64,000 nt of DNA from Pseudonocardia broussonetiae (GTDB lineage Bacteria > Actinomycetota > Actinomycetes > Mycobacteriales > Pseudonocardiaceae), in assembly GCF_013155125.1 (NCBI RefSeq), contig NZ_CP053564.1:6331501-6395500 (forward strand), given 5' to 3'. Positions 4,310 through 24,127 of the stretch are shown here, in pieces (position 1 is the first letter of the stretch; the number at the start of each line of letters is the position of its first letter). The translations under genes were made by a program, and so were the position numbers. The notes under the pieces were generated by a model. It saw only the letters and a program-made list of their open reading frames with translations, searched no databases and was not told the DNA's origin.

Positions 4310-4337
4310 TGCTCGTGCGCCCCAAATGCGCCCCAAA
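4310..4337. repeat. Left end of island, putative attL (28-bp direct repeat)
   Basis: The 28 bases here are identical to 24100-24127. The repeat starts TGCTCGTGCGCCCC and ends GCGCCCCAAA, directly after the glnA terminator and 340 bp before the excisionase/integrase pair. Identical short direct repeats bounding an integrase-bearing segment are the usual mark of site-specific integration. Confidence 0.75.
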
Positions 4338-4678
4338 CGAAGATCATCTCTCGACCTCTTGCAGCGCTGTGACCTGCATGCTCAGGGCAATGAACCGGAC
4401 GGGTCAACCGGCCCTGATCATCCCCGTGCGCCCCAAACAGCTCGATGATCTTCAAAATGTCCGGTTTGACGAACGAATCGTCAGATCGGGGTCTCGAACG
4501 GCCATCTGGGGCGTGCACGACCGGTTTGTCGATCCCCCACAACCGGTACGGCCCGACCACGAGCTGACCACGTCCCCGCCACACCTCGGACCACACCGAG
4601 CTACGACGCAGCCACGCCTCGACCGATCGCCCGCCGCAGCGTTGACAGGCATCGCGATCCCTCGATCGGAGGCCTGCC
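4338..4678. other. Non-coding att-proximal region with candidate integrase arm sites
   Basis: There is no credible gene in these 341 bases. They contain GAAGATCATC at 4339-4348 and its exact reverse complement GATGATCTTC at 4444-4453; TGATCTTC recurs beside the right repeat at 24136-24143. The partial att motif GTGCGCCCCAAA recurs at 4426-4437. These could be arm-type binding sites for the integrase, by analogy with other tyrosine-recombinase systems. Confidence 0.4.
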
Positions 4679-4870
4679 GTGGACGACCAGCCCGAACCGC
4701 TCTGGGGCACCCCCGAGGTGGCGCGCTACCTCCAGATCCCCGTCGCCACGCTCTACCAGTGGCGCCACCACCGCTACGGCCCGCCCGGGCGCCGGGTAGG
4801 GCGCTACGTCCGCTACGACCCCGACGAGGTCCGGCGCTGGTTCACCGAGCAGTCCGACGGCGCCGCCTGA
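4679..4870 (+). CDS. Excisionase-like helix-turn-helix protein
   Basis: The 63-residue protein is a single MerR-like/AlpA-type winged helix (TPEVARYLQIPVATLYQWRH, then GRYVRYDPDEVRRWF). Such proteins act as recombination directionality factors or excisionases in integrative elements. The GTG start has GGAG about nine bases upstream. It ends two bases before the integrase start, so the two are surely cotranscribed, and it lies 341 bp from the putative attL. Confidence 0.8.
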   Translation: MDDQPEPLWGTPEVARYLQIPVATLYQWRHHRYGPPGRRVGRYVRYDPDEVRRWFTEQSDGAA

Positions 4871-4872
4871 CC

Positions 4873-6156
4873 GTGGCCCACGTCAACGACGCCTGGTACG
4901 TCGAACGACGCCAGCCCGACGGCACCACCCGCCGGCAGAAGACGCCCCGGCACGGGCTGGGCAAGCGGTGGATCGTGCGCTGGCGCGACCACGCCGGCGA
5001 GGACCGCAAGCAGTTCTTCGACAAGAAGACCGACGCCGAGCAGGCCGCCGCCCGCCTCGACACCGAGCTCGCCCGCCGCACCTACATCGACCCCCGCGCC
5101 GGGGAGATCGCGTTCCGCGACTACGCCGAGCAGTGGCGCCTGGGCCAGTTCGCCGACCCCAACACCGCCTACCAGGTCCGCGCCCGGCTGCGGCTGCACG
5201 TCTACCCCAAACTCGGGAACCTCGCGATGCAGGTCATCACGCCCTCCCACATCCGCAGCTGGCTGCGCGGCCTCACCGTCTCCCTCAGCTACCAGCGCAC
5301 CCTGTTCGCGAACGTCTCCCAGGTCTTCACCGCCGCGATCGCCGACGACATCCTCACCAAGAACCCCTGCGTCAACCGCACGGTGCGCAAGCCCGTCGCC
5401 GACCCCCAGCAGATCGTGCCGTGGACCGCCCGGCAGGTCACCGACGTCCACCGCGCCCTGCCCGACCGCTACGCCATCCTCGCGCTCCTCGCCGCCGGCA
5501 CCGGCCTGCGCCAGGGCGAGATCCTCGCCCTCTCCGCCTCTGACGTCGACCTCGAACGGCGCAGCATCCAGGTCCAGCGCCAGATCAAGCTCACCCCCGG
5601 CAACCAGCCCTACTTCGCCCTGCCCAAGGGCCGCAAGGTCCGCACCGTCCCCCTGCCCGACTCCGTCCGCGACGCACTCACCGAACACCTCGCCCGGTTC
5701 CCCGCCCGCGCGGTCACCCTCGGCTGGGACAGGACCGACGGCAAGCCCACCACCGCCGACCTGATCCTCACCACCCGCGAGCGCAAGCCGGTCAACCGGC
5801 ACTACTTCAACGCCAAGATCTGGAAGCCCGCCCTCACCGCCGCCGACATCCCACCCACCCGCGAGAACGGCTGCCACGCCCTGCGCCACTACTACGCCAG
5901 CGTCCTGCTCGACGGCGGCGAATCGATCAGGACCGTCAGCGAGCGCCTCGGCCACGCCGACCCCGGGTTCACCCTGCGCACCTACACCCACCTGCTCCCC
6001 CAGAGCGAGACGCGCACCCGCGACATCATCGACACCGCCCTCCGCGCCCTCCCCCCGCGCACCACCCCGACACCCGGCACCAGCGCCGCCCCGCGGCACC
6101 TGTCCGGGCCGACGAGAGCGCGCCGCTCCCCCGGTCAGTTCGGGCCGCAGCGCTGA
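4873..6156 (+). CDS. int: Tyrosine-type site-specific recombinase (integrase)
   Basis: The 427-residue integrase has an N-terminal arm/SAM-like core-binding region (about 60-170) and a C-terminal catalytic domain with the family residues R213 (GTGLRQGE), H335 and R338 (HALRH), H361 (LGHADP) and the nucleophile Y371 (TYTHL). All are present, so it should be active. The GTG start lies immediately after the excisionase-like gene. Upstream in-frame codons (from 4309) run through non-coding att DNA and were not used. It presumably catalyses integration at the glnA 3' flank. Confidence 0.92.
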   Translation: MAHVNDAWYVERRQPDGTTRRQKTPRHGLGKRWIVRWRDHAGEDRKQFFDKKTDAEQAAARLDTELARRTYIDPRAGEIAFRDYAEQWRLGQFADPNTAYQVRARLRLHVYPKLGNLAMQVITPSHIRSWLRGLTVSLSYQRTLFANVSQVFTAAIADDILTKNPCVNRTVRKPVADPQQIVPWTARQVTDVHRALPDRYAILALLAAGTGLRQGEILALSASDVDLERRSIQVQRQIKLTPGNQPYFALPKGRKVRTVPLPDSVRDALTEHLARFPARAVTLGWDRTDGKPTTADLILTTRERKPVNRHYFNAKIWKPALTAADIPPTRENGCHALRHYYASVLLDGGESIRTVSERLGHADPGFTLRTYTHLLPQSETRTRDIIDTALRALPPRTTPTPGTSAAPRHLSGPTRARRSPGQFGPQR

Positions 6157-6308
6157 CCCTCACCCCTGCTCGGGCAGAGGAATCGATGCGGGAACCACGC
6201 ACCGACCACGTGCCCGATGCGGACGTGATGGGTGAAACACCGCGATCGAGGAGCGCGATGGCAGGGGGACGGACGACCACGATCCGTCGCACGAGGGGGA
6301 CGGACAGC

Positions 6309-7596
6309 ATGGCGATCTTCGGTGGACGACGACGGGCCGCAGACCTGGAGGTGGAGCTCGCCCGGGCCCACACCATGCTGGCCGAGCTCGGGGCGCTCGA
6401 CCACGTCGAGTGGGCCGCCCGCCGCCAGGCCGCCGAGCAGCAGCTCGCGCAGGTCCTCGCCGAGGAGCACGCCGCCCGCCGTCGTATCGCCGGCGCCGAG
6501 CTGGAGCTGGGGCAGCTCCGCTCGCTGCTGCTCGAGACCCGCGACCAGGAACTGCTGCAGTCCGCCGGGGTCTACGAGTTCACCCACCCGCTGGAGAACT
6601 CCGTCGCCTACAAGGACCGGCTGCAGAGCCTGCGCGCCGACATCAAGGCCGAGGTCACCGCCCGGCGCGCGGTCAGCGGCAGCGTCGACTGGCAGGTCAA
6701 CGGGTCCCGCCAGCAGGGCGCGAAGATGGTCAAGGACTTCTCCACGCTCATGCTGCGCGCCTACAACGCCGAGGCCGACAACTGCGTGCGCACCGTCCGC
6801 CCGCACACCCTGGCCAGCGTCTGCCAGCGCCTGGACAAGACCCAGCGCACCATCGCCAAGCTCGGCGCCACCATGTCCATCGCCGTCAGCAGGCGCTACC
6901 ACGCGCTGCGGACGATGGAGATCGAGCTGACCGCCGACCACCTCGCCATGGTCGAGGCCGAACGCGAGCGCATCCGCGCCGAGAAGGAAGCCGCCCGCGA
7001 GGAGGAACGCGCCCGCCGCGAGTTCGAGCGGCAGCGCGAGAAGCTGCTCAAGGAGCAGGCCCACTACCGCACCGCCTACGACCGCCTGCTCGCCCTGCCC
7101 TCGGCCGACCCCGCCGCCGTCACCGAGCTGCGGGCCCAGCTCGAACGGCTCGGCACCGACATCGCCGCCGTCGAGGCCCGCGCGGCGAACACCCGGGCCG
7201 GCTACGTCTACGTCATCAGCAACATCGGCTCGTTCGGCGACCACGTGGTCAAGATCGGCATGACCCGCCGTCTGGACCCCATGGACCGCGTCCGCGAGCT
7301 CGGCGACGCCTCCGTCCCGTTCCGCTTCGACGTCCACGCCCTCGTCTTCAGCGACGACGCCGTCGGCCTCGAAGGACGCCTGCACGCCGACCTCGCCGAG
7401 CGCCGCCTGAACAAGGTCAACCAGCACCGCGAGTTCTTCCGCACCACCCCCGCCGAGGTCCGTGACCTCCTCACCCGCGCCGCCGGCAGCCACCTGCTCG
7501 AGTACACGGAAACCGTCGACGCCCTGGAGTGGCGCGCAAGCGGCGCGACCTCGACCGCCGCACCCGCCCCGCCGACGCCCACCCCACCGCCCCCCG
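6309..7596 (+). CDS. DUF4041 and GIY-YIG (T5orf172) protein, first part of a frameshifted fusion
   Basis: About 429 residues are in frame here. Order: an N-terminal coiled coil (about 10-75), a DUF4041-type region (about 90-220), a long charged coiled coil (about 205-260, rich in Glu/Arg), and a T5orf172/MUG113-type GIY-YIG domain (about 298-395; YVYVISN and VKIGMT are the characteristic strands). A Pro-rich linker follows. The frame then runs on as meaningless sequence; the sense continues in the +1 frame as a TerD domain after a run of six C at 7590-7595. The ATG at 6309 was chosen because earlier ones precede no domain. GIY-YIG proteins of this type are nuclease-like and frequent in phages and islands; the role is unknown. 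Confidence 0.75.
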
Positions 7597-8148
7597 GCCA
7601 CCGCGCCCGAGCCCCCGGCAGCACCCGCGCCCGCTGCGGACCACGACGGCCCGGCCCTGCGCCCCGACGAGCGGGTCGCGCTGACCGCGACGCACCTGCG
7701 GCTCGTGCTGCGCACCGACGACGACACCGAGGCCGACCCGATCGCGTTCCTGCTCACCCATGCCGGCGAGGTCCGCACCGATGCCGACATGGTGTTCTAC
7801 GGCCAGCCCGACCACGGCAGCGGCGCGGTCACCCTCGCCGCCGACGAGACCGGCGCCGCGACCACGCTGCATCTGACCCCGCGCAAGATCCCCGCCGACG
7901 TCACCGAGGTCCTCGTCGTCGCTCAGCTCCCCGCCGACCACAGCGATCCCGGATCGGCGCACGTGATCGACCTCGACACCGGTCAACCCCTCGGCCACCT
8001 CGCCCTGCCTGCCACCGGCCCCACCGGCCTGCTCCAGCTCGCCGCCCTGCAGCGCAGCGACGGCCAGTGGCACCTCCAGATGGCAGCGGCCGTCGTCGAT
8101 CACGACCTCGCGGCCCTCGCCGCCGCAGCCGGGGTCTCGGTCGACTGA
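7594..8148 (+). CDS. TerD-like domain, second part of the frameshifted fusion
   Basis: This frame encodes a Pro/Ala linker, then a TerD/tellurium-resistance-type beta-sandwich of about 165 residues (RPDERVALT, DADMVFYGQ, IPADVTEVLVV, DLDTGQPLGH). TerD proteins bind calcium and are linked to stress and phage resistance. No start codon with a ribosome site exists at its head; a GTG at 7462 would first read about 130 bases out of frame inside the GIY-YIG region. The best reading is that it was the C-terminus of the preceding gene, separated by one extra C. Sequencing error, true mutation or programmed slippage cannot be distinguished. Confidence 0.65.
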   Translation, partial: PATAPEPPAAPAPAADHDGPALRPDERVALTATHLRLVLRTDDDTEADPIAFLLTHAGEVRTDADMVFYGQPDHGSGAVTLAADETGAATTLHLTPRKIPADVTEVLVVAQLPADHSDPGSAHVIDLDTGQPLGHLALPATGPTGLLQLAALQRSDGQWHLQMAAAVVDHDLAALAAAAGVSVD

Positions 8149-8191
8149 GCTACGGAACGCCCCCGTTCCGCACCGACCACGGCCGGACCAC

Positions 8192-8212
8192 GTCAGAAGG
8201 GTCCCTTCTGAC
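8192..8212. terminator. Hairpin between TerD-like gene and kinase
   Basis: A perfect 9-bp stem (GTCAGAAGG/CCTTCTGAC) with a 3-nt loop lies 44 bp after the TerD-like stop. No strong T-run follows, so it may be a terminator or a protein-binding palindrome upstream of the kinase gene. Confidence 0.45.
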
Positions 8213-8313
8213 ATATCTCGCTCTGCCCTTGATGCTGCCTCCGCCGCTAACGGCTGCGGCGTTCCGAACGACACTCAGGCAACCGCGCACGCCCGTCGTC
8301 CCCGGAGTGTCCT

Positions 8314-9870
8314 GTGACCGAGATGTTCGGGCGGTACCGGTTGGAGTCGCTGCTCGGGCGAGGCGGGATGGGCGAGGTCCATCGGGCGTTCGACACCGAG
8401 GCCGAGCGGATGGTCGCGCTCAAGCGGCTTCCTGCACGCTTGGCGGCCGACGAGGAGTTCGTGGCCCGCTTCCGGTCGGAGTGCGCGTTGGCCTCGAGCC
8501 TGACTCATCCGCACGTGGTTCCCGTGCACCGCTACGGGGAGATCGAGGGCCGTCTGTACCTGGACATGATGCTGATCGACGGGCAGGACCTGGCAGCCGT
8601 CCTCGCCGAGCACGGTCCCCTGCAACCGGCGCGCGCCGTTGCAGTCGTCGAACAGGTTGCCGCCGCGCTCGACGCCGCCCACCGACTCGGACTCGTGCAC
8701 CGCGACGTCAAGCCGAGCAACGTGCTCGTCGCACGGTCCGACGGCGCAGCCTTCGTGGCCGATTTCGGCATCGCCCGCGCGGTGAGCGGCGGTTCGACGT
8801 CCCAGACATCGACCGGCGCCGTGGTCGGGTCATTGGCCTACATGGCTCCAGAGCGGTTCACCAGCGGCCACGGCGACCACCGCGTCGACGTGTACTCCGC
8901 GGGCTGTCTGCTCTACGAGATGCTGACCGGGCGAGCCCCTTTCGCCGGCGAGGGGTTGCCGGCGATGATCCACGCCCACCTCAACTCCCCACCGCCGCGC
9001 CCGTCCGACGTGGTCGGCGTTCCCGTCGCGCTCGACCACGTGGTCGCTCGAGCCCTGGCCAAGGATCCCGACCAGCGGTACACCTCCGCCGGCGGCCTCG
9101 CCGTCGACGCCCGGGCCGCGCTCCGCGGCGATCTGCCGGGGCCCGCGGCGCCGCACCCCAACCCGACCGCCGCCGCCCCGCGACGGCGGGTGCGCCCCTC
9201 GGTGGCCGTACCTCTCGCAGTGGCAGCCGTCCTCGCTGTCCTCGGCCTCGCCACGACCGCCATCCGCACCGGTCCGGCCACCGATGCCTCAGCCGCTCCG
9301 CCGCGATCGGCACCGACGGACTCTGGGGCGACGACGAGTCCTCCCGGCGCAGGCCCCGCCACCCGCCAGGTGGATGCCCCGACCGGTGGTCAGGGCGACG
9401 GCGGCGCGGCAACAGCACCCGGCACCGCGAGCACACGGCCACCCGTCGGGCCGCCACCGCCCGACGCCGGGGTGGTCGTTCCGACGACGATCGTTGCGAC
9501 GGCCTCCAGGTCCGAGGACCGCCCGCCACCCCCACCACCACCGCCTCCGCCTCCGCCACCACAGCCGCCCCGGATCCTGGGGCAGTCGACGGAGGTCCAG
9601 GGCGATCTCGTCTACCTCTCCGTTTCCTACAGCGACGACGACGGTGATGCCGTGGGCTTCGGATTCCGCGGAGTCAACGGGTCAGGCTGGGGACAGGAGA
9701 CCCATTCGTTCGACGCCCCCTCCTACGGGCGCGCCTCCCCGGGGCAGATCTCCTACCCGTTCAACCACGCCTGCACCCAGGCCCCGTCGCGCGAGTCCGA
9801 CATCGAGTTCTGGATCGTCGACAGCGGAGACCGGCGCGACTCCGTCACCGTCCACCTGACCTGCTCCTGA
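8314..9870 (+). CDS. Transmembrane Ser/Thr protein kinase with extracellular domain
   Basis: The 518-residue protein is a PknB-family Hanks kinase. Residues about 7-265 carry LGRGGMGEV (Gly loop), ALKRL (Lys), HRDVKPSN (catalytic loop at 129) and DFGIA (150). A basic Pro-rich stretch leads to one transmembrane helix (about 295-315), a long Thr/Pro/Ala spacer, thirteen consecutive prolines near 405-417, and a C-terminal domain of about 95 residues with four Cys-poor strands and a terminal Cys. That outer domain is not PASTA and I do not recognise it. It lies eight bases upstream of a zinc-ribbon membrane protein. Location on the island suggests a stress or defence sensor. Confidence 0.88.
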   Translation: MTEMFGRYRLESLLGRGGMGEVHRAFDTEAERMVALKRLPARLAADEEFVARFRSECALASSLTHPHVVPVHRYGEIEGRLYLDMMLIDGQDLAAVLAEHGPLQPARAVAVVEQVAAALDAAHRLGLVHRDVKPSNVLVARSDGAAFVADFGIARAVSGGSTSQTSTGAVVGSLAYMAPERFTSGHGDHRVDVYSAGCLLYEMLTGRAPFAGEGLPAMIHAHLNSPPPRPSDVVGVPVALDHVVARALAKDPDQRYTSAGGLAVDARAALRGDLPGPAAPHPNPTAAAPRRRVRPSVAVPLAVAAVLAVLGLATTAIRTGPATDASAAPPRSAPTDSGATTSPPGAGPATRQVDAPTGGQGDGGAATAPGTASTRPPVGPPPPDAGVVVPTTIVATASRSEDRPPPPPPPPPPPPPQPPRILGQSTEVQGDLVYLSVSYSDDDGDAVGFGFRGVNGSGWGQETHSFDAPSYGRASPGQISYPFNHACTQAPSRESDIEFWIVDSGDRRDSVTVHLTCS

Positions 9871-9878
9871 GGATCCCC

Positions 9879-10352
9879 ATGACAGACACCGTCTCGCCCA
9901 CCCGGACCGTCTACGTCCGCGACTGCCGCCACTGCAGGACCGAGATGGAACACGGCTACACCAGCACCTGCCCGGACTGCGGTTGGCGCATGGGACTCAA
10001 GCCCGTGGCCGAGAGCCACAACGACGACGGGAACCTGGCCACCCTGTTCGTCGCCGAGCAGCCCGGCCGGTACAGCCGGATCTCGCTGATCACGGCCACC
10101 CTCGCCGCCGTCATCCTCCTGGCGGTCGGAGCACAGGCGAGTGTCGGCCTGACACTCCTGGGAGTCGCCGCGCTCGTCGTCCTCGCGGTCGTCTGGCGCG
10201 AGACGCGGTTCGGACGGGTGATCTACGGTCTGACTCCGGGGATGCGCGCTCTCACGAGGGTCGTCCTCGCCGTCGGCACCGTCCTGGTGTTCTGCACCGT
10301 GATCGGCATCGTCATCGGCTGGAAGGGCGGCGACCGTCTGATGGGCCGCTGA
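9879..10352 (+). CDS. Zinc-ribbon membrane protein of unknown function
   Basis: The 157-residue protein has a Cys4 zinc ribbon (C16, C19, C31, C34) followed by a Gly/Arg linker and three hydrophobic helices (about 68-86, 88-106 and 124-146). It follows the kinase gene by eight bases, so it is probably cotranscribed and may be its membrane partner or substrate. I cannot name a family. Confidence 0.7.
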   Translation: MTDTVSPTRTVYVRDCRHCRTEMEHGYTSTCPDCGWRMGLKPVAESHNDDGNLATLFVAEQPGRYSRISLITATLAAVILLAVGAQASVGLTLLGVAALVVLAVVWRETRFGRVIYGLTPGMRALTRVVLAVGTVLVFCTVIGIVIGWKGGDRLMGR

Positions 10353-10456
10353 GCAGGGCCGACCGCCCGACTTCGCCACAGCGGTGCCGACCACGGAACG
10401 GCCACGAATTGACCACGCTCGCCGATCGATCGACCGGGCGCTCCTGAGCCTGACGA

Positions 10457-10690
10457 TCAGCGCCCGAGAACGCTCGACAGCGTGGCTTGCAGGTTCGCGA
10501 CGTCGGCTCCGGTCGTCACCCGCCAGGCGATGTGGTTGTCCGCCCGCACGAGCAGGGCCCCGTCCTCGGCGAAATCACTGAGCTGCGCCCGGGCGGCCGA
10601 GGGGTCGGAGTACTCGGCGTCGGCACCGATGCGCACGACCGTCACCGAACACCGGCCGAACGAGGCGATGTCACTGCATCGTGTCGACGG
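10457..10690 (-). pseudogene. C-terminal fragment of a PheA/TfdB-type FAD monooxygenase
   Basis: About 70 codons match the thioredoxin-like tail of aromatic FAD hydroxylases (VVRIGADAEY, then GALLVRADNHIAWR, ending in a helix). The rest of the enzyme is absent upstream, where the frame runs into the promoter region of the PHA depolymerase gene. It is a remnant, perhaps from a relative of the intact monooxygenase at 13929-15569, whose tail has the similar LLLRPDLHVAWR. Confidence 0.6.
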
Positions 10691-10751
10691 CGCCGAGGTC
10701 GATTACCGTTTGAATGTGACGCACGCCGCGAACTGATCGGAGCTCGAGCCC

Positions 10752-11986
10752 ATGCTCTACCCCGCCTACGAACTGCATCGGCGACTCACCGAGCCGGCCC
10801 GGATCTCGTCCGCGCTGCTCCACCGCACCCTGTCCGGCCTGCCCGCGCCGCTCGCGGAGCTCCGCGGGACCCGCCGGCTCAAGGCCCTCAGTGAGATACT
10901 CGTGCAGTCGCGGCCCACCCACGTCCGTCCGGACTGGGGGATCGACTCGGTCTCGATCGCGGGCGACGAGGTCGAGGTCTCCGTCCGACCGGTGCTGCGG
11001 ACGCCGTTCGCCACCCTGCTGAACTTCACCACACCGGGGATCAGCGGGCGGACGCCGATGCTGCTCGTGGGCCCGATCTCGGGGCACTTCGCCACGCTGC
11101 TGCGCCCCACGGTCCGCACCCTGCTGGCCGACCACGACGTCTACGTCCTGGACTGGCACAACGCCCGGGACATCCCGGCGGACGAGGGCCGGTTCGGGCT
11201 CGACGAGTACATCGACCACGTGCTGGCCGCCATGCGCCACCTCGGTCCGGACCACCACGCCCTCGCGGTCTGCCAGCCGGCGCCGCTGGTCCTCGCCGCT
11301 GTGGCCGTACTGGCGTCCGCGGACGACCCCGCCCAGCCACGCAGCGTGACGCTGATGGCGGGACCGATCGACACCCGGGTCAACCCGAACAAGATCAATG
11401 AGCTCGCGGACCGCCGTCCCCTGTCCTTCTACGAGCGGTTCCTGGTCTCGCGGGTCCCCCGCCAGTACCCGGGGGCCGGGAGGCGCGTCTACCCGGGACT
11501 GGCCCAGTTGACCGCGTTCATGTCGATGAACATCCGGCGGCACCTGGGCTCGCACGTGGAGCTCTACCGAGCGCTGGTCGCGGGCGACGGGGCGACCGCC
11601 GCGCGGATCCGCGACTTCTACGACGAGTACGGGGCGGTCATGGACGTCCCGGCCGAGTTCTACCTGGAGACGCTGCAGCGCGTCTTCATGGAGCACGACC
11701 TACCGCGCGGCGCGTTCACCTGGCGCGGACAACCGGTCGACCTCTCCGTCATCAGCAGAACCGCGCTGCTCACCGTCGAGGGGGCCGAGGACGACATGTG
11801 CTCGCCCGGGCAGACCGCAGCAGCCCACGACCTGTGCACCGGGATCCCCGCCGGGGACCACCGTCAGCACTTGCAGCCGGGCGTCGGGCACTACGGGTGT
11901 TCGCGGGCTCACGCTGGGAGTCCGAGATCTACCCGGTCATCCGCGACTTCGTCGCGGCCCGGTCTGCCACCCGCACAGCGTCCTAG
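10752..11986 (+). CDS. phaZ: Polyhydroxyalkanoate depolymerase, intracellular type (frameshifted)
   Basis: An alpha/beta-hydrolase-fold protein of the PHB depolymerase family (about 411 residues if repaired) that mobilises stored polyester. Its family blocks include a nucleophile-elbow region (LAVCQPAPL), the MAGPIDTRVNP motif and the C-terminal GHYG. After GHYG the frame shifts by one base: a G appears to be missing from the G-run at 11895-11897, since the next frame reads VFAGSRWESEIYPVIRDF, the expected end, and stops at 11986. As written, the frame instead runs on in phase into the PHA synthase gene. The ATG follows GGAG at about nine bases. Confidence 0.75.
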
Positions 11987-12017
11987 TCGATCGTCCACGC
12001 ATGAGGATGGGAGCCGC

Positions 12018-13766
12018 ATGAGCACAGAGGTCTTCGGCCGCAGCGGCGAGGAGCGGACCACCCCAGCACCGCGGTCGTCGGTGGAGCCCGTTCCGGACGA
12101 CGAAGCCGATGCCCTCGATGTGGTCGAGGGTGGAGAGGCGGTCGGCATCCCGTCGGTCGCCGGGGTCCTGAAAGGGGTCGCCTCGGCGTTCGCGCAGCCC
12201 GGACCCGTCACCCGAGGCGCCGCCCGGCTCGCGCGGGACCTCGTCTCGATCGGGCGCGGCACCGACGACCACACACCCCACCCGAAGGACAAGCGATTCG
12301 CCGACCCGGCCTGGTCGACGAACCCGATCTTCCGTCGGCTCGCCCAGAGCTACCTCGCTCTGGGCGCAGAACTGAACCGTCTGGTCGACGAGTACGAGAA
12401 CGGCTCGGCGGACTGGCACGACGTCGAGCGGGCACGGTTCGCGGTGTCCGCGCTGACCAGCGCGTTGTCGCCGACGAACCAGCTGCCGACGAATCCCGCA
12501 GCGTTGAAGCGGGCCTTCGACACCGCGGGGGCGAGTGTCCTGCGAGGGGCCCGCCAGTTCGCCCACGACGTCCGGCACAACGGCGGACTCCCCACACAGA
12601 CCGACCGCACCGCCTTCACCGTGGGCGAGGATCTGGGTGTCACCCCAGGTGACGTCATCCACCGCGACGAGGTGGCCGAGCTGATCGAGTACCGGCCGAG
12701 CACCGCGACCGTCCACGAGCGGCCCCTGCTGATCATCCCGCCGCCGATCGGCCGCTTCTACTTCCTGGACCTGCGGCCCGGACGCAGCTTCGTGGAGTAC
12801 GCGGTGAGCCGCGGGCTGCGCGTGTTCATGCTCAGCTGGCGCAACCCCACCGCAGAGCAGGCGGACTGGGACATCGACACCTACGCCCGCCGGATCCTGA
12901 GCGCCGTCGACATCGTCAAGGACGTGGCGGGCGTCGAGGACGTCAACAGCCTCGGGTTCTGCGCCGGGGGCATTCTGCAGACCGCCGTCCTGGGCCACCT
13001 CGCCGCGAAGGGCGAGCACGGCATCCACGCCGCGTCCTACGGCGTCACCCTGCTGGACTTCGGCGTACGCGCCCCGATCGGGGCCTTCTCCGCCCCGCAG
13101 GCGCTGGAGATGGCCCGCGCGGACTCGCGGCGCAAGGGGGTCATCACGGCGCAGTCGCTGGCCACCGTGTTCAGCTGGATGCGGCCCGACGACCTTATTT
13201 TCAACTACGTCGTCAACAACTGGCTGATGGGCGAGCGTCCCCCGGTCTTCGACATCCTGGCCTGGAACGCGGACGGGACGAACCTGCCCGCGGCGCTGCA
13301 CTCCCAGTTCCTCGACATCTTCCGATCCAACACCCTCGCGGAGGACCGGCTCGAGGTACTGGGCACGCCGATCGAGCTCGGCGAGATCACGGCCCCGGTG
13401 TTCGTCACGGGCGCGCTGAACGACCACCTCACTCCCTGGACCGGCTGCTACCGGACCACCGAGCTGGTGGGCGGACCGAGCACGTTCGTCCTGAGCAACG
13501 CCGGCCACATCGCCAGCCTGGTCAACCCACCTGGGAACCCGAAGGCGAGCTACTTCATCGGAGGAGACTCTTCTGACGGTCCCGAGCAGTGGCGTGCCAC
13601 CGCGGAGAAGCGCCAGGGCACGTGGTGGGAGGCGTGGGCCGACTGGGTCGTGGGAAGGTCAGGCGACGAACGACCGGCACCCACCTCGGGAGGCGACGCC
13701 CATCATCCGCCGCTGGAGCCGGCGCCGGGCTCCTACGTCGTGGACCGCATCCCCTCCTCGAGGTGA
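12018..13766 (+). CDS. phaC: Class I poly(R)-hydroxyalkanoate synthase
   Basis: The 582-residue protein polymerises (R)-3-hydroxyacyl-CoA into storage polyester granules. The lipase-like box is GFCAGG with the catalytic Cys at 315, the usual place for a class I PhaC of about 590 residues. The N-terminal domain and the C-terminal GHIAS segment with the catalytic His are present, as is the WWEAWADW motif near the end. The ATG has GGGAG five bases upstream. It pairs with the depolymerase upstream as a synthesis/mobilisation couple. Confidence 0.9.
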   Translation: MSTEVFGRSGEERTTPAPRSSVEPVPDDEADALDVVEGGEAVGIPSVAGVLKGVASAFAQPGPVTRGAARLARDLVSIGRGTDDHTPHPKDKRFADPAWSTNPIFRRLAQSYLALGAELNRLVDEYENGSADWHDVERARFAVSALTSALSPTNQLPTNPAALKRAFDTAGASVLRGARQFAHDVRHNGGLPTQTDRTAFTVGEDLGVTPGDVIHRDEVAELIEYRPSTATVHERPLLIIPPPIGRFYFLDLRPGRSFVEYAVSRGLRVFMLSWRNPTAEQADWDIDTYARRILSAVDIVKDVAGVEDVNSLGFCAGGILQTAVLGHLAAKGEHGIHAASYGVTLLDFGVRAPIGAFSAPQALEMARADSRRKGVITAQSLATVFSWMRPDDLIFNYVVNNWLMGERPPVFDILAWNADGTNLPAALHSQFLDIFRSNTLAEDRLEVLGTPIELGEITAPVFVTGALNDHLTPWTGCYRTTELVGGPSTFVLSNAGHIASLVNPPGNPKASYFIGGDSSDGPEQWRATAEKRQGTWWEAWADWVVGRSGDERPAPTSGGDAHHPPLEPAPGSYVVDRIPSSR

Positions 13767-13767
13767 C

Positions 13768-13918: not shown

Positions 13919-13944
13919 CACCGGCCGGTTACGACCGGCCGGTG
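13919..13944 (-). terminator. Terminator hairpin of the meta-cleavage operon
   Basis: A perfect 11-bp stem (CACCGGCCGGT/ACCGGCCGGTG) with loop TACG overlaps the stop codon of the FAD monooxygenase gene. It could also stop transcripts from the convergent side. Confidence 0.6.
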
Positions 13945-15569: not shown

Positions 15570-16387
15570 CGCCGGAGGAACGCGGCGACGAGGTCGGTGA
15601 ACTCCGCGGCCCGCTCGATCTGGGTCCAGTGCCCGCAGCGGGCGAACACGTGGAGGTCGGCGTCGCGCAGGAGGTTGACCATCGTCCAGGACACCTCCGG
15701 CGGCACGACCTTGTCCTCGCGCCCGTGCACCAGCAGCGTCGGGGTGGCGATGGCGCGCACCTGCTCCTCGGTGATGCCGAGGTCGTTGCCGGCGTGGCGG
15801 GGGTCGAAGAACATCGAGCGGTAGGCGTCGAAGGTCTCGACGCTGGCCTCGTACCGGATCCGGACGAGCTCATCGGTGATGATCGACTTGTCGACCGCGA
15901 AGTAGTCGAGCAGCAGCGCCCGCATGTTCTCCGGCGACGGCTCGTACGCCCGCAGCGCCTTGAGGCCGTCGGTGAGCGTCATGCCGACGCCGGGCGAACC
16001 CATGAGGACCATCCGCGCCACGCGGTCGGGGTGCCGCTCGGCCAGCGCGAGGGAGATCCGGCCGCCCAGGGAGTTGCCGACGAGCGAGACGCGCTCGAGC
16101 CCGAGGGCGTCCATGAACCCCACGACGTGGTCGGTCCAGGTGTCGAGCGAGTAGCGCACGTCATCGGGCCGCGCGGTCGCGCCGTAGCCGACGACGTCGG
16201 GGGCGAGTACGCGGTACTCGCGCGACAGGCCCGGGATCGTGTGCTGCCAGTTGGCCCAGGCCGAGACGCCGGGCCCGGAGCCGTGCAGCAGCAGCACGGG
16301 ATCGCCCGCACCGGCCTCGAGGTAGAAGGTGTCGATCCCGGCGACGTCGACGCGGTGGCCCGCGGACAGGTCGGCGAGGGTGGTCAC
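15566..16387 (-). CDS. Alpha/beta hydrolase, meta-cleavage product C-C hydrolase type
   Basis: The 273-residue protein carries the HGSGPGVSAWANW oxyanion-loop signature of MhpC/BphD/HsaD hydrolases that split vinylogous 1,5-diketones formed by extradiol ring cleavage. The triad is Ser106 (GNSLGG), Asp225 and His253. The GTG start overlaps the dioxygenase stop (GTGA). Function and neighbours agree well: the preceding gene encodes the ring-cleavage enzyme that should supply its substrate. Confidence 0.9.
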   Translation of the reverse strand: MTTLADLSAGHRVDVAGIDTFYLEAGAGDPVLLLHGSGPGVSAWANWQHTIPGLSREYRVLAPDVVGYGATARPDDVRYSLDTWTDHVVGFMDALGLERVSLVGNSLGGRISLALAERHPDRVARMVLMGSPGVGMTLTDGLKALRAYEPSPENMRALLLDYFAVDKSIITDELVRIRYEASVETFDAYRSMFFDPRHAGNDLGITEEQVRAIATPTLLVHGREDKVVPPEVSWTMVNLLRDADLHVFARCGHWTQIERAAEFTDLVAAFLRR

Positions 16388-17457
16388 GGGGTCTCCTGGT
16401 GGTAGACGGCGAAGCACTTGTTGGAGTTGAAGACGTCGGTCTCGACCAGCATCGACCAGTCCAGCGCCATGCCCAGCTCGCTCATCGCCCCCATCAGGCA
16501 GAACCAGTTGAGCATCTCGTGCTGGCCGGAATCGACGATCTCGGCGCCGGTGACCGCGCGCCAGGTCTCGGTGTCGCCCGCGACGAAGGCGTCGTAGAGG
16601 CGGCGGTCGGCGGCGGTGTCGGGCCGCAGGTGCCAGTCCTTGTCGACGAGGAACGCGTGCGACCAGCTCGACGACGCCACGAACGCGACGCGGTCGCCGC
16701 TGCCCGCCACCGCACGCGCGACGGCGGCGCCCAGATCGAAGCAGCGGCGCGGACTGGGACCGACGGGGTCGAGCTGCTCGTCGCGGATGTCGGCGAAGCG
16801 GGCGAGACCGCCGCGGCGGGCGATCGCGTGCTGGCCGTAGCAGTTCACCGTGATCGGCACGAGCGGGTAGGGGAACTGCGCGCCGGCGTGGTCGTAGTCG
16901 AGGAACAGCTGGGTGTTGAGGATGGCGTGCGGGAAGTGCGCGCCGGCCCGCTTGCGGTAGGAGTAGGCCATGTCGAAGCCGTCGTTGATCAGCTTATTGG
17001 CCAGCGTCCGCGACCGTCCGGCGTCGCCGTGCAGCGTGATCGAGAAGTCCTCGGGCAGGCCCCACGCGTTGGGGCTGCCGCGCTCGTTCATCACCTCGAA
17101 CGCGGGCACCTCGAGGTCGTCGTAGGCCAGCACGCAGAACGGCGGCACGACCTCCTCGCGGAAGTTCTCGTACTGGTCGTCGCCCCAGACCACGACGTAG
17201 TCGGGGCGGAACTCGTCGAGCTCCTTGCGGCAGCGCGCGAGGTGGTCGACGAGCTCGGCGCGGTGCCGGGTCGCGGCGGAGCGCCCGCCGTCATCACCCC
17301 ACTCCTGCCGCATCCGGTCGGGCCACGTGGCCGGGTCCTTCAGCTCGTCGGGGATGTCGGGGTCGGTGAGCGTCCAGCGCAGCAGGCCCGCCATGTGCTC
17401 GTCGGTGCCCGCCAGCAGCGGGTAGTGGGTCAGCCCGAGCCCGAGGAACTCCGCCAT
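16384..17457 (-). CDS. Class III (LigB-type) extradiol ring-cleavage dioxygenase
   Basis: The 357-residue protein begins with GLGLTHYP, where His11 fits the first iron ligand of LigB/MhpB-type Fe(II) dioxygenases. It also has VVVWGDDQYENF, SITLHGDAG, PHAILNTQLFLDYD and SSSWSHAFL blocks, typical of an actinobacterial branch of this family that lacks a separate alpha subunit. The ATG at 17457 was chosen for AGGA at good spacing; the longer frame upstream would overlap the promoter. It is the first gene of the operon under the operator at 17502-17531. The substrate is unknown, probably a carboxylated catechol. Confidence 0.85.
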   Translation of the reverse strand: MAEFLGLGLTHYPLLAGTDEHMAGLLRWTLTDPDIPDELKDPATWPDRMRQEWGDDGGRSAATRHRAELVDHLARCRKELDEFRPDYVVVWGDDQYENFREEVVPPFCVLAYDDLEVPAFEVMNERGSPNAWGLPEDFSITLHGDAGRSRTLANKLINDGFDMAYSYRKRAGAHFPHAILNTQLFLDYDHAGAQFPYPLVPITVNCYGQHAIARRGGLARFADIRDEQLDPVGPSPRRCFDLGAAVARAVAGSGDRVAFVASSSWSHAFLVDKDWHLRPDTAADRRLYDAFVAGDTETWRAVTGAEIVDSGQHEMLNWFCLMGAMSELGMALDWSMLVETDVFNSNKCFAVYHQETP

Positions 17458-17501
17458 GACCGTCCTCTCCTCCTCCGGCGGCAGCGCCGGGATCGGACTC
17501 C

Positions 17502-17531
17502 ACCGTACGCAAACCTGCACACAGGATTCAA
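17502..17531 (-). promoter_or_regulatory. Promoter and GntR operator, site 1 (meta-cleavage operon)
   Basis: On the minus strand TTGAAT (-35) and TACGGT (-10) are 18 bp apart and enclose the palindrome CCTG-TGTG-CAGG (17514-17525). The site overlaps the last codon and stop of the GntR gene and reads toward the extradiol dioxygenase. The same layout occurs at 18313 and 22098. Confidence 0.75.
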
Positions 17532-18256
17532 GGTTTCTGGTCGTGTCCCGTCGGCGAGCGGGAGGGATCCACGGCCCGGACCAGGTCGTGGCGGTGCAGC
17601 GACATCAGCTTGTCCAGCGCCTCGCGGTCGTGGTCGCGGATGGCCGCGGCGATGCCTGCGTGGACCTCGATGTTGTGGGCGTACATCTCCTCGTGGCCGG
17701 GCAGCAGCTCCGCGCGCTTGAGGTTGCCGGTGACGATCGCGGCGATCGCCTCGTACATACCGGCCAGCACCGGGATCCGCGCCGCGCGCGCGATCGCCTG
17801 GTGGAAGCGCAGGTTGGCCTCCAGGAAGCTGCGCGGTTCGGCGGCGCCGCGCATCTCCTCCACCGCCCACTCCAGGGCGCGGACGTCGGCGGGCCCGGCC
17901 CGGTCGACCGCCACCGAGGTCAGCACGTCCTCCAGGTGGGTGCGGGCCTCGAACAGGTCCAGCGGGTCCGGCCCGGACTCGGAGAACCACAGGTCCAGGG
18001 CGCCGAGGCGGACCTGCGGGGGCTGGCTGGCCACGAACACCCCGCCGCCGGGACCCGGGCGCACGACGACCAGGCCGCGGTCGCGCAGGATCCGCAGGAC
18101 CTCGTTCATGATCATGGGGCTGACCTGGTGGTGCTCCATCAGGTCGGTGCGCCTGCCCAGGGACGTGCCCACCGGCGTGCGGTTCGCGAGCAGCTCGTTC
18201 TCGATGGCCGCGGCCACCTGCTGGGCGCGTGACGGGGTGGTGCCCTCGCGCGGCAT
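17528..18256 (-). CDS. GntR family regulator, FCD (FadR-like) type
   Basis: The 242-residue protein has an N-terminal winged helix (about 10-78; VVVRPGPGGGVFVA closes the wing) and an all-helical FCD ligand domain (about 95-225) with FHQAIARAA and EVHAGIAAAI His-bearing helices. Such regulators usually repress catabolic operons until a substrate-derived carboxylate binds. It sits between two divergent catabolic operons, and three matching palindromic operators are found in front of those operons and the transporter, so it is almost certainly the local repressor. Confidence 0.9.
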   Translation of the reverse strand: MPREGTTPSRAQQVAAAIENELLANRTPVGTSLGRRTDLMEHHQVSPMIMNEVLRILRDRGLVVVRPGPGGGVFVASQPPQVRLGALDLWFSESGPDPLDLFEARTHLEDVLTSVAVDRAGPADVRALEWAVEEMRGAAEPRSFLEANLRFHQAIARAARIPVLAGMYEAIAAIVTGNLKRAELLPGHEEMYAHNIEVHAGIAAAIRDHDREALDKLMSLHRHDLVRAVDPSRSPTGHDQKP

Positions 18257-18312
18257 GGGTCCTCCGAGGTCGGAACGGCGAAGATCGTGGAGCCAGGATA
18301 GTGCATCATTCC

Positions 18313-18341
18313 TTGAAACGTGTGTGCACGATCGCTACCGT
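18313..18341 (+). promoter_or_regulatory. Promoter and GntR operator, site 2 (Rieske operon)
   Basis: TTGAAA (18313-18318) and TACCGT (18336-18341) with 17-bp spacing enclose the palindrome CGTG-TGTG-CACG (18319-18330). It lies 87 bp before the Rieske alpha start, in the gap divergent from the GntR gene, so it may control both. Confidence 0.78.
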
Positions 18342-18427
18342 GGCCGCATCAGCCCCGGACAACGGTGTCGAGCGGTGGTTTCGCCGCGGACGCTCCGACC
18401 GGTGCCCACCACTCCGCTGGAGCCCTC

Positions 18428-19705
18428 ATGACCGCGACGTTCGATCCCACCCGACAGCTCGCCCCGTCCGGGCCGCTCGTCGACGAGGACCGCGAGCACC
18501 ACCGCTTCCGGGTCCACCGCTCGACGATGACCTCGCCCGAGATCCACGCCCTCGAGATGGAGCGGGTGTTCGCCCGCAGCTGGCTCTACGTGGGCCACGA
18601 GTCCGAGATCCGCGACCCCGGCGACTACGTCCGCCGTCCGGTTGGCGGCAAGCAGATCTTCATGGTGCGCAACAAGCGCGGCGAGGTGCGCGTCTTCCAC
18701 AACACCTGCACCCACCGCGGCGCGATGGTGTGCCGCAAGGACCAGGGCAACGCCAAGGTCTTCCAGTGCTTCTACCACGCGTGGTCGTTCGACACGGACG
18801 GCCGGCTGGTGGGCGTGCCCGACCGCGACGCCTACGGCGACGGGCTCGACTTCGGCGCGCTCGGGCTGCGCCCGGTGGCCCGCACCGAGTCCTACCGCGG
18901 GTTCGTCTTCCTCAGCTACGACCCCGGCATCGTCGACCTCGTCGAGTACCTGGCCGGGGCCACGGAGTACCTCGACCTCGTCGTCGACGCCACCGGCGAC
19001 GCCGAGATCATCCGCGGCACCAACGAGTACGCGATCGAGGCGAACTGGAAGCTGCTCGCCGAGAACAGCATCGACGGCTACCACGCCGTGCCGACCCACG
19101 ACACCTACTTCAAGTACCTCGTGGCGCTGGGCACCGACCTGTCCGGCGGGGTCGCGGGCACGGCGAAGAGCCTGGGCAACGGCCACGCGGTCCTGGAGTA
19201 CTCCGCGCCGTGGGGCCGGCCGGTCGCGAAGTGGGAGCCGCTGTTCGGCGAGGACTCCCGCGACGAGATCGGGCGGCTGCGCGCCGACCTCGTCGCCAAG
19301 CACGGGGAGGAGCGGGCCCGGCGCATGTGCGACACCAACCGCAACATGCTGATCTACCCCAACCTCGTGATCAACGACATCATGGCGATCACCGTGCGCA
19401 CCTTCATGCCGACCTCCGCCGACCGCATGGAGGTCACCGCCTGGGAGATGGCGCCCCGCGACGAGCTGCCGCAGCTGCGCCAGCGCCGCCTAGACAGCTT
19501 CCTCACCTTCCTCGGCCCCGGCGGCTTCGCCACCCCCGACGACATCGAGGCGCTCGAGTCCTGCCAGCAGGGCTTCCACAGCGGCGGCCTGGAGTGGAAC
19601 GACATCTCCCGCGGCATGGCTCGCGAACCCCTGGCCAACGACGAGGAGCAGATGCGCACGTTCTGGCGGCAGTGGAACGAGCAGATCACCGGGGGTGCGC
19701 GATGA
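18428..19705 (+). CDS. Aromatic-ring-hydroxylating dioxygenase, Rieske alpha subunit
   Basis: The 425-residue catalytic subunit has a Rieske centre (C94, H96, C114, H117) and the mononuclear iron site in NWKLLAENSIDGYHAVPTH (bridging D216, ligands H219 and H224). It dihydroxylates an aromatic acid or similar ring using O2. It overlaps the beta subunit by four bases. No ferredoxin or reductase gene is in this operon, so electrons must come from elsewhere. The ATG at 18428 begins at the natural N-terminus; longer upstream reading frames cross the promoter. Confidence 0.93.
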   Translation: MTATFDPTRQLAPSGPLVDEDREHHRFRVHRSTMTSPEIHALEMERVFARSWLYVGHESEIRDPGDYVRRPVGGKQIFMVRNKRGEVRVFHNTCTHRGAMVCRKDQGNAKVFQCFYHAWSFDTDGRLVGVPDRDAYGDGLDFGALGLRPVARTESYRGFVFLSYDPGIVDLVEYLAGATEYLDLVVDATGDAEIIRGTNEYAIEANWKLLAENSIDGYHAVPTHDTYFKYLVALGTDLSGGVAGTAKSLGNGHAVLEYSAPWGRPVAKWEPLFGEDSRDEIGRLRADLVAKHGEERARRMCDTNRNMLIYPNLVINDIMAITVRTFMPTSADRMEVTAWEMAPRDELPQLRQRRLDSFLTFLGPGGFATPDDIEALESCQQGFHSGGLEWNDISRGMAREPLANDEEQMRTFWRQWNEQITGGAR

Positions 19706-20250
19706 CCGTCACCGACGAGCCCGCCGCCGTCGTCGTCGGCCCCGCGGTCGGCGATCCGGCCGCGGTCACCCGCGCCCAGGTCGAGGACTTCCTCTACGCC
19801 GAGGCCGAGCTGCTCGACGCCTGGGACCTCGACACCTGGATCACGCTCTACACCGACGACTGCCACTACGTCGTGCCCTGCAACGACACGCCCGACGGCG
19901 ACCCCTCCCGCGACCTCGTCCTCATCGACGACAACGCGCTGCGGCTGCGCTCGCGCATCGAGCGGCTCGGCAGCCGCAAGGCCCACCGCGAGTACCCGCA
20001 CTCCACCACCAGCCACCAGGTCACCAACGTGCGGCTGCGCCCGGTGGAGGGCTCCGGTCCCGGCGCGGAGCTGCCGGTCGTCGCCGAGTTCACGGTGTGG
20101 CGCTTCCGCGGCGAGCGCTCCACCACCTACGTGGGCCGGTACCAGTACCGCCTGCGGGTGGTCGACGGGCGGCTGCGGATCGCCTCGAAGCGGGCGACGC
20201 TGGCGATGGGCAGCCTGCGGCAGGTCCACGACGTCGCGATCATCCTGTGA
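19702..20250 (+). CDS. Aromatic-ring-hydroxylating dioxygenase, beta subunit
   Basis: The 182-residue NTF2-fold small subunit (EDFLYAEAELLDAWDLDTWITLYTDD start, RKAHREYPHSTTSHQVTNVR core) is structural in benzoate/anthranilate/cumate-type dioxygenases and forms alpha3beta3 hexamers. ATGA overlap with alpha and GTGA overlap with the SDR indicate tight coupling. Confidence 0.92.
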   Translation: MTVTDEPAAVVVGPAVGDPAAVTRAQVEDFLYAEAELLDAWDLDTWITLYTDDCHYVVPCNDTPDGDPSRDLVLIDDNALRLRSRIERLGSRKAHREYPHSTTSHQVTNVRLRPVEGSGPGAELPVVAEFTVWRFRGERSTTYVGRYQYRLRVVDGRLRIASKRATLAMGSLRQVHDVAIIL

Positions 20251-22006: not shown

Positions 22007-22097
22007 TCGTCGCACAACCTGCTAGCACGATTCCGGCTTCAGACTGCCCGGTTTCGGCGCGTACCGCCGCTGTCACAGCAAATGCGCCGATCGGCCC

Positions 22098-22127
22098 TTG
22101 AATCATGTGTGCATGATTGGGTACCTT
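22098..22127 (+). promoter_or_regulatory. Promoter and GntR operator, site 3 (MHS transporter)
   Basis: TTGAAT (22098-22103) and TACCTT (22122-22127) are 18 bp apart and enclose ATCATG-TGTG-CATGAT (22102-22117), the most symmetrical of the three sites. It lies about 40 bp before the transporter start. Confidence 0.78.
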
Positions 22128-22165
22128 CCTTGCGACAGTGACGTCCTTCACACCGAGGAGCAACC

Positions 22166-23515: not shown

Positions 23516-23551
23516 CGGAGGTCGGCCACCGTCCCGGGACCGTGTGAGTCA

Positions 23552-23580
23552 CCGGTGGCCGTCCGACCGACGGCCACCGG
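23552..23580. terminator. Strong hairpin after the MHS transporter
   Basis: A perfect 12-bp stem (CCGGTGGCCGTC/GACGGCCACCGG) with a 5-nt loop lies 37 bp after the transporter stop. It marks the end of the functional catabolic cluster. Confidence 0.75.
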
Positions 23581-23591
23581 CGCGCACTCCC

Positions 23592-24000
23592 TCAGATCAG
23601 GACGGTGATCTGGTCGGGCCGCCCGAGCAGCTCCCGGCCGTAGATCTCCGAGCAGATCGACGGGTTGACGATCGCGTGGCGGCTCCCGGTCGCCTGGTCG
23701 CGCCAGATGCGCTGCAGCGGGTTGTCCTCGCCGGAACTGCCCGCTCCCCGATGCTCACCAGCAGGTCGATCGCCTCACGGCAGCGGCACGCGATGTACCA
23801 GGCGGTTCGTATGCTCCGGGGACCGGGCTCACCTGTCGACGTCGCCCGCGGCGGGCACGGCGTGCAGGTGCGCGGTGCCGATGTGGCCTGGGCCAGGTCC
23901 AGCTGCCTCGCCGGCGCTTCGGCCGCGTCCTCGTAGGACGTGTACGGGATCGGCCGGTGCTTCGCCTGGTACGTGGTCGACGCGTGGTCAGTACGTAGAC
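23592..24000 (-). pseudogene. Remnant of an HsaA/acyl-CoA-dehydrogenase-type monooxygenase
   Basis: The minus strand encodes the C-terminal part of a flavin-dependent monooxygenase or type-2 acyl-CoA dehydrogenase domain (EDNPLQRIWRDQATGSRHA at the end; EAIDLLVSIGERA before it). The pieces are in different frames: one base is lost near 23742 and at least one further shift lies near 23850. No N-terminal half is found. It is dead and lies just inside the right end of the island. Confidence 0.65.
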
Positions 24001-24099
24001 GTTGCGGTTCGGGAACGTGGTCTGCCACCGCGCTTCCGGCGGGCGCTCCGAGGTTCAGAGTCGCCCTGGCAGCCGTAGATCCAGCACTCTCTCTCCCGA

Positions 24100-24127
24100 T
24101 GCTCGTGCGCCCCAAATGCGCCCCAAA
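24100..24127. repeat. Right end of island, putative attR (28-bp direct repeat)
   Basis: All 28 bases equal those at 4310-4337, 19.8 kb away. TGATCTTC, shared with the left end, follows at 24136-24143. The interval between the copies contains the integrase, the catabolic genes and several gene remnants. Confidence 0.75.

What the first reader, a model, noticed from the sequence alone, without database searches (positions are those of the whole stretch)
4310..24127. A 19.8-kb integrative island carrying an aromatic catabolic cluster, inserted at the glnA 3' flank
The sequence shows an exact 28-bp direct repeat at both ends, an intact tyrosine recombinase (R, H, R, H, Y all present) and an excisionase-like gene just inside the left copy. 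The cargo includes dioxygenases, a dedicated regulator and a transporter, plus several gene remnants and an IS3 fragment. Integrases usually target tRNA genes; a target directly behind the glnA terminator would be unusual.
Basis: partly seen in the sequence, partly recalled or inferred. Interest (0 to 1): 0.85.

Follow-up and report, generated by a model that had tools for sequence, protein, structure and literature searches.

The report
Integrative island seated at glnA stop codon
A 20-kb mobile island in a soil actinobacterium appears to insert at the very end of the gene for glutamine synthetase and to supply that gene with a new transcription terminator, at a spot that related islands have entered repeatedly.

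Summary
The island is real, but its attachment core is probably not the 28-bp repeat. That repeat is exact (4310-4337, 24100-24127) and unique to these two places in the genome. A second duplication frames the island: 15 bp at the glnA stop codon (4200-4214; 24177-24191), each followed by a terminator-like hairpin and an intact or decayed tandem 11-bp repeat. Across Pseudonocardia the tandem starts 101-104 bp after the glnA stop in 13 of 60 flanks, and exactly 85 bp before the end of the displaced stop in 9 of 9 right ends measured. Repeat letters agree at both ends of one element but differ between elements, and similar tandems follow related integrases beside tRNA-Arg and nucS. So the 28-bp repeats most likely are integrase arm sites and the crossover lies at the glnA stop codon: the element brings a terminator and displaces the old one. 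G009 and G070 carry stacked elements; the window holds an older scar. Cargo is an ordinary aromatic catabolic cluster plus a SNIPE-like gene. The IS3 fragment was not confirmed. Excision was not testable. My paper searches surfaced no glnA-targeted element.

The parts
2783..4213 (+). glnA (glutamine synthetase); its last codons and stop form the left core
   Evidence: GlnA 99% identical in G009, 97.7% in G005
4200..4214 (+). attL core ACTACGACGTCTGAT (last codons and stop of glnA), inferred crossover region
   Evidence: identical to 24177-24191; core followed by displaced terminators in relatives
4247..4306 (+). terminator-like hairpin between core and arm, inferred to be element-supplied
   Evidence: stem of about 15 pairs conserved in 21 copies with changes on both sides (structure predicted on the same copies); not reported by the simple terminator scan, which allows loops of 3-8 only
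4310..4337 (+). left copy of the 28-bp repeat; 4316-4337 is the tandem 11-bp arm-type pair (P')
   Evidence: tandem at offset 101-104 in 13 of 60 flanks
4427..4437 (+). third, single arm-like unit TGCGCCCCAAA
   Evidence: read by eye; a similar unit in G009 and G070
4679..4870 (+). xis-like HTH_17 gene
   Evidence: PF12728 E=1e-10; 94-95% identical beside the sister integrases
4873..6156 (+). int, tyrosine recombinase (start codon chosen by eye; 4882-6153 was scanned)
   Evidence: PF00589; 90-91% identical to integrases of the stacked elements in G009 and G070
6309..7640 (+). DUF4041/GIY-YIG (T5orf172) nuclease, SNIPE/PD-Lambda-1-like; 3' end uncertain
   Evidence: PADLOC PD-Lambda-1 E=5e-107; Pfam
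8314..9870 (+). Ser/Thr protein kinase
   Evidence: PF00069 E=1.5e-46
10460..10702 (-). remnant of a ring-hydroxylase C-terminus
   Evidence: PF21274 E=7e-8
10752..13766 (+). one open frame: phaZ-like depolymerase (3' end seemingly out of frame) followed by phaC-like PHA synthase
   Evidence: TIGR01849 E=6e-140, TIGR01839 E=4e-170, the latter below its cut-off
13929..15569 (-). FAD-dependent aromatic ring hydroxylase
   Evidence: PF01494, NF004780
15566..16417 (-). alpha/beta hydrolase, meta-cleavage-product type
   Evidence: best model HsaD, below its cut-off
16384..17520 (-). LigB-type extradiol dioxygenase
   Evidence: PF02900 E=2e-11
17528..18256 (-). GntR/FCD regulator
18320..19705 (+). 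Rieske dioxygenase alpha subunit
   Evidence: PF00355, PF00848; best model BenA, below its cut-off
19702..20229 (+). Rieske dioxygenase beta subunit
   Evidence: PF00866
20241..21023 (+). SDR, probable diol dehydrogenase
   Evidence: PF13561
21020..22006 (+). amidohydrolase_2 family protein
   Evidence: PF04909
22166..23515 (+). MFS metabolite/H+ symporter type
   Evidence: TIGR00883 E=1e-124, below its cut-off
23595..23774 (-). remnant of an acyl-CoA-dehydrogenase-like C-terminus
   Evidence: PF08028 E=2e-5
24100..24127 (+). right copy of the 28-bp repeat; 24106-24127 is the tandem arm-type pair (P)
   Evidence: 85 bp from tandem start to the end of the displaced stop, as in 8 other right ends
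24177..24191 (+). attR core: displaced copy of the glnA stop region
   Evidence: identical to 4200-4214
24224..24279 (+). displaced older hairpin
   Evidence: inverted repeat; pairs in the alignment; partial terminator-like hit at 24262-24276
24290..24311 (+). decayed tandem arm pair: probable scar of an older element's left end
   Evidence: read by eye; offset 99 from the displaced stop, against 101-104 beside glnA
24345..25310 (-). cold-shock-domain protein gene, right flank
   Evidence: four CSD stretches, PF00313; beside glnA in G002 and G027

Best explanation
This is an integrative element of 19,977 bp (core to core). Its tyrosine integrase probably recombines at a short core covering the last codons and stop of glnA (ACTACGACGTCTGAT). 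The element's own attachment site would read: tandem arm pair - 49 bp - core - terminator-like hairpin - tandem arm pair. After insertion glnA keeps its protein sequence (the core letters are identical), receives the element's hairpin and is followed by the left arm pair; the older hairpin is left beyond the right core. The 28-bp repeats would contain the integrase's arm-type binding sites and would not be the target duplication. Because the left end recreates the core, later elements can land at the same spot and stack. Shown: sequences, positions, spacings, recurrence in the genus, tandem stacks. Inferred: crossover position, arm-site role, terminator role, present mobility. Cargo: an aromatic-ring catabolic cluster, a DUF4041 nuclease of the SNIPE type beside int, and PHA genes. 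No FtsK-type transfer gene was found in it, so transfer would need help from elsewhere.
For: (1) Fixed geometry: tandem repeat at offset 101-104 after the glnA stop in 13 of 60 flanks, the window's own included, against 1 of 923 control windows; exactly 85 bp before the end of the displaced stop in 9 of 9 right ends measured, although the DNA between differs (these 9 were chosen because an arm was visible). (2) Repeat letters are element-specific: in the 6 elements with both ends on one contig (window, two in G009, two in G070, G016) the 8-bp unit agrees at both ends, with three unit types among them (one unit of a G070 right end has one mismatch). (3) Displaced terminators: in G011, right of the core lies DNA 95% identical to that next to glnA in G004, leading to the epimerase gene found downstream also in the window, G009 and G067 (G011's two ends are on different contigs). 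(4) Flanks without repeats: glnA, another terminator, cold-shock gene in G002 and G027. (5) Among related integrases away from the glnA pairs, a similar tandem follows int in 5 of 16 rows: two near-identical Saccharomonospora beside tRNA-Arg, Lentzea beside nucS, one MAG and G011 contig 1 without assigned target. (6) The six complete integrases at glnA form one clade (100/99) of two subclades, with int at opposite ends of the element.
Against: No excised circle or reads were available. The flanks of G002 and G027 carry unrelated terminators, so they are not near-identical empty sites. A hairpin of the same kind stands behind glnA without an intact tandem in 12 further genomes (picked by arm position and sequence from 19; G083 has a 7-of-8 tandem), so it could be old host DNA in part of the genus. 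11 of 16 related integrase rows show no such tandem, those beside rnpB and tRNA-Ala among them. G016's displaced terminator is at best 78% identical to any glnA-adjacent flank. G004 runs the other way: another terminator and an integrase fragment beside glnA, the hairpin copy displaced, no arm seen, and its integrase falls outside the glnA clade. In G015 the second copy follows another gene. G067 has a left end but no second core in about 19 kb downstream.
Confidence: 0.85

Rival explanations
1. One reading: the 28-bp repeat is the crossover core and the element inserted behind the glnA terminator; the glnA 3' copy on the right is an unrelated older duplication.
For: The 28-bp repeat is the longest exact repeat seen at the ends and is unique in the genome.
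Against: It needs a duplicated glnA end in each host beforehand; an exact second core close behind glnA is in 0 of 60 flanks of 419-1500 bp (decayed cores would be missed). Repeat letters differ between elements at one site but agree within an element, and similar tandems accompany 5 of 16 related integrase rows at other places.
Confidence: 0.07
2. The hairpin is an old host terminator of one Pseudonocardia lineage and is itself the target; elements insert into or beside the hairpin and not at the stop codon.
For: The hairpin stands behind glnA without an intact tandem in 12 further genomes; the run after it (TTCGTGCTCGTG) is shared by both copies in the window.
Against: In G011 and G016 the displaced DNA runs from the core directly into a terminator of another kind, which places the exchange upstream of the hairpin.
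Confidence: 0.06
3. The island has this architecture but is a relic that no longer excises or moves.
For: Gene remnants inside, phaZ seemingly out of frame at its end, no FtsK-type gene in the island; G067 keeps only a left end.
Against: int and xis frames are open, and both arm pairs and both cores are exact copies; sister integrases (90-91%) sit in stacked elements at the same site in G009 and G070.
Confidence: 0.3

Closest known systems
Actinomycete integrative and conjugative elements (AICEs, pSAM2 type)
   Same: Tyrosine integrase with a small HTH excisionase-like gene before it; a related integrase (44%) lies on an 18-kb Streptomyces plasmid beside an HTH gene, with genes annotated FtsK and primase/polymerase
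   Different: Target is glnA, where the vast majority of AICEs with tyrosine integrases use tRNA 3' ends (PMC3218068, passages read); no FtsK-type gene in this island
Genomic islands that carry a replacement 3' end for a protein-coding target (for example SGI1 at trmE)
   Same: Element restores the target's 3' end and leaves a displaced fragment at its far end (principle in PMC10111431, passage read; trmE from the abstract start of PMC8409611 in a search listing)
   Different: Target is the glnA stop codon; what is replaced is mainly the terminator, since the core letters are the same before and after
SNIPE / PD-Lambda-1 anti-phage nuclease (PMC13190303, passages read)
   Same: DUF4041 plus T5orf172/GIY-YIG domains; PADLOC PD-Lambda-1 E=5e-107
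   Different: A cargo gene here; membrane anchor not tested, activity unknown

Membership tests
Site-specific integrative element with tyrosine integrase | Open integrase gene with catalytic residues | tested here: met
   (catalytic roles recalled)
Site-specific integrative element with tyrosine integrase | Identical core at both ends, one of them in the target gene | tested here: met
   15 identical bp at the glnA stop and at the right end; that this is the exchange site is inferred
Site-specific integrative element with tyrosine integrase | Relatives without the element at the same place | tested here: met
   G002 and G027 join glnA directly to the cold-shock gene; no intact tandem behind glnA in 47 of 60 flanks, though some of these may hold other elements
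Site-specific integrative element with tyrosine integrase | Excision as a circle | not testable with these tools
   no reads or cells
AICE (pSAM2 type) | FtsK/TraSA-type transfer protein | tested here: not met
   none of the genome's 16 PF01580 matches lies in the island
AICE (pSAM2 type) | Replication initiator (RepSA or prim-pol type) | tested here: inconclusive
   none among the ORFs scanned; no dedicated search made
AICE (pSAM2 type) | tRNA 3' end as target (usual, not universal) | tested here: not met
   no tRNA gene in the window
SNIPE / PD-Lambda-1 | DUF4041 and GIY-YIG (T5orf172) domains in one protein | tested here: met
SNIPE / PD-Lambda-1 | N-terminal membrane anchor | not tested
   no topology prediction run

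The most novel reading that the evidence does not exclude
A dedicated clade of integrases has made the stop codon of glnA its home and swaps the terminator of a central nitrogen-assimilation gene at each arrival, so that the glnA 3' end in Pseudonocardia is a layered record of past invasions, and its terminator, possibly its expression, is set by the latest element.
Probability: 0.3. Interest if true: 0.7.

Novelty: new variant of a known kind. Interest (0 to 1): 0.5.

Why it matters
glnA is highly conserved, so its last codons would be a dependable landing site; an integrase that uses them without changing the protein could become an integration tool for Pseudonocardia, where genetic tools are few (abstract start of PMC8928166, search listing). 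The case also shows how a mobile element may spare its host gene by bringing a replacement terminator, and why the longest exact repeat at an island's ends need not be its attachment core: borders called by that repeat would be off by about 110 bp on the left and 64 bp on the right here. The stacked copies in G009 and G070 are a natural series for studying accretion.

Tried and rejected
Rejected: the 28-bp repeat as crossover core (see rivals). Rejected: the glnA copy on the right as pristine host DNA; it carries a decayed arm pair near the usual spacing, so it looks like an older element's left end. IS3 in the window: no rve match (PF00665). Led nowhere: phage records hold only relatives under 60% identity (1087 records; 26.8-28.1% in the 8 rows listed); the Streptomyces plasmid showed no tandem repeat near its integrase; the left-end pattern in 397 genomes sampled from the order gave the window's two places, one in G068 and one in G353 (3 of 397 genomes; the reversed control pattern gave 1 place, G163). 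G353's place is a glnA end without a tandem repeat (read); G068's is on another contig than its glnA and was not followed. That sample held only 3 genomes of the genus, the window's own included, so it says little about Pseudonocardia.

Paper searches on a glnA target: no listed title or abstract start names one; two of them listed no papers. The main texts of PMC12884075, PMC3218068 and PMC10111431 hold no mention of glnA. Four papers listed mention glnA in their text and were not opened. The paper likely to list protein-gene targets (PMC7192596) is not held.

Dropped before counts: of 62 genomes in the genus, G019 and G029 gave no usable glnA flank, and one G082 contig ended before the stop codon; G082 is counted through its other contig, so 60 flanks are 60 genomes, the window's own included. 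The 85-bp count was run on 9 right ends in which an arm had been seen; the displaced copies in G004 and G015, read by eye, show no such arm. G011 contig 22 gave no core, and G024 contig 404 is a second glnA end; both were left out. In one search matches shorter than 150 residues were dropped, which removed L136 and L137; L150 and L151 gave no row, and L139-L141 were not entered.

Full report
Observation. The window lies in a 7,287,435-base genome at C1:6331501-6395500. The 28-bp repeat at 4310-4337 and 24100-24127 is exact and found nowhere else at up to 3 mismatches. A small HTH gene and int lie just inside the left copy. There is no tRNA gene in the window. It holds the last codons and stop of glnA, a hairpin and an intact or decayed arm pair, and its first 15 bp are identical in both places.

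Genus. The set held has 62 genomes, the window's own included.

Two kinds of glnA flank. Of 60 usable flanks, 13 have a tandem 11-bp repeat starting 101-104 bp after the stop (G000, G005, G006, G009, G011, G015, G016, G018, G062, G067, G070, G076, G082); control windows elsewhere in the 64 kb gave 1 of 923. All 13 show an inverted repeat between stop and tandem, 12 of them with at least 12 of 13 pairs and G018 with 11. In that search 31 of 60 flanks reached 12 of 13 pairs; of the 19 without an intact tandem, 12 have this hairpin by arm position and sequence and 7 have other stems. In an alignment of 21 copies the stem keeps pairing through changes on both sides, for example C-G to T-A (the structure was predicted on the same copies).

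Right ends. Displaced copies of the core with an arm pair were found for the window, G009 (two), G070 (two), G011, G016, G018 and G075; in all 9 the tandem starts exactly 85 bp before the end of the displaced stop. Displaced copies in G004 and G015 show no such arm. In G009 the order is glnA, a 177-kb stretch with an integrase 65% identical to the window's at its right end, core and hairpin, a 24-kb stretch with an integrase 90-91% identical at its left end, core and hairpin, epimerase gene. G070 has the same two integrases in tandem, and after the second element's core a further hairpin and arm pair. In G011 the DNA behind the displaced core is 95% identical to that beside glnA in G004 and leads to the epimerase gene; G011's left end is on another contig. 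In G016 it is another GC-rich hairpin, at best 78% identical to a glnA-adjacent flank (G033). These displaced terminators place the exchange at or before the stop codon.

Why the 28-bp repeat is probably not the core. First, its letters are specific to each element: TGCGCCCC (window and the distal elements of G009 and G070), TGTGCCAC (proximal elements of G009 and G070), TGCGCCAC (G016); the unit agrees at both ends in these 6 of 6 elements with both ends on one contig, one unit of G070's right end having one mismatch. Second, a similar tandem follows related integrases elsewhere in 5 of 16 rows: two near-identical Saccharomonospora beside tRNA-Arg, Lentzea beside the nucS end, and one MAG and G011 contig 1 without an assigned target. 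The other 11 rows, including those beside rnpB and tRNA-Ala, show none. Third, the arrangement that the other model needs was seen in 0 of 60 flanks (exact pattern, 419-1500 bp).

Integrase tree. The six complete integrases at glnA form one group (100/99) with two subgroups, with int at opposite ends of the element. The partial integrase beside glnA in G004 falls elsewhere, so glnA may have been adopted more than once.

Cargo. Rieske alpha and beta, SDR, GntR, LigB and hydrolase genes occur together at loci away from glnA in G031, G085, G026 and G070, and LigB relatives at E<=1e-40 in 24 of 62 genomes, the window's own included. The cluster is thus a cassette of the genus that this island holds. 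No Rieske reductase or ferredoxin gene was named among the ORFs scanned. The substrate is unknown; an aromatic acid is my guess. Beside int, and shared with the distal elements of G009 and G070 (94% and 89%), lies a DUF4041/GIY-YIG gene of the PD-Lambda-1 type, a family reported to cut phage DNA during injection (PMC13190303, passages read).

Mobility. No FtsK-type gene lies in the island, nor within the G009 and G070 stacks. Excision was not testable.

Literature. Ten paper searches were made; 27, 29, 30, 38, 43 and 82 bear on a glnA target, and no listed title or abstract start names one. Most subscription papers are outside that library and supplementary tables were not open to me, so an entry in an island database cannot be excluded.

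Limits. Crossover point, arm role and terminator function are inferred. No near-identical empty site was found; the flanks without repeats that share the right neighbour are from diverged species. G004, G015 and G067 do not fit the simple scheme in full.

Noticed in passing
window 6309-7640: SNIPE/PD-Lambda-1-like nuclease gene directly behind int, also in the sister elements of G009 and G070: a possible defence gene linked to the integration module.
   Followed up: partly
window 24290-24311: Decayed tandem arm pair behind the displaced hairpin: probable scar of an older element at the same site.
   Followed up: partly
L048 (G004) 7950-10760: Reverse arrangement: another terminator and an integrase fragment facing glnA beside it, hairpin copy displaced; perhaps an independent glnA-targeting element.
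   Followed up: partly
L042 (G015) around 3800: Stop-hairpin-arm block follows the end of what looks like an alpha/beta-hydrolase frame and not glnA; possible secondary site or rearrangement.
   Followed up: no
L130 11194-11927 (Lentzea nigeriaca): Integrase relative (47%) ends 67 bp from the 3' end of a nucS gene, with a tandem repeat between; possibly another protein-gene target.
   Followed up: partly
L138, L145, L146: Integrase relatives lie beside the RNase P RNA gene in Nonomuraea and two Pseudonocardia genomes; rnpB may be a target.
   Followed up: partly
L036 and L128, 3' end of the 65% integrase: In the other element type the right arm pair overlaps the last codons of int.
   Followed up: no
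window 10752-13766: phaZ-like frame loses its usual C-terminus and runs into phaC without a stop; apparent frameshift.
   Followed up: no
L038 (G016) 14015-14971: The cold-shock gene lies between glnA and the right core, in the opposite orientation relative to glnA than in the window; capture or inversion.
   Followed up: no
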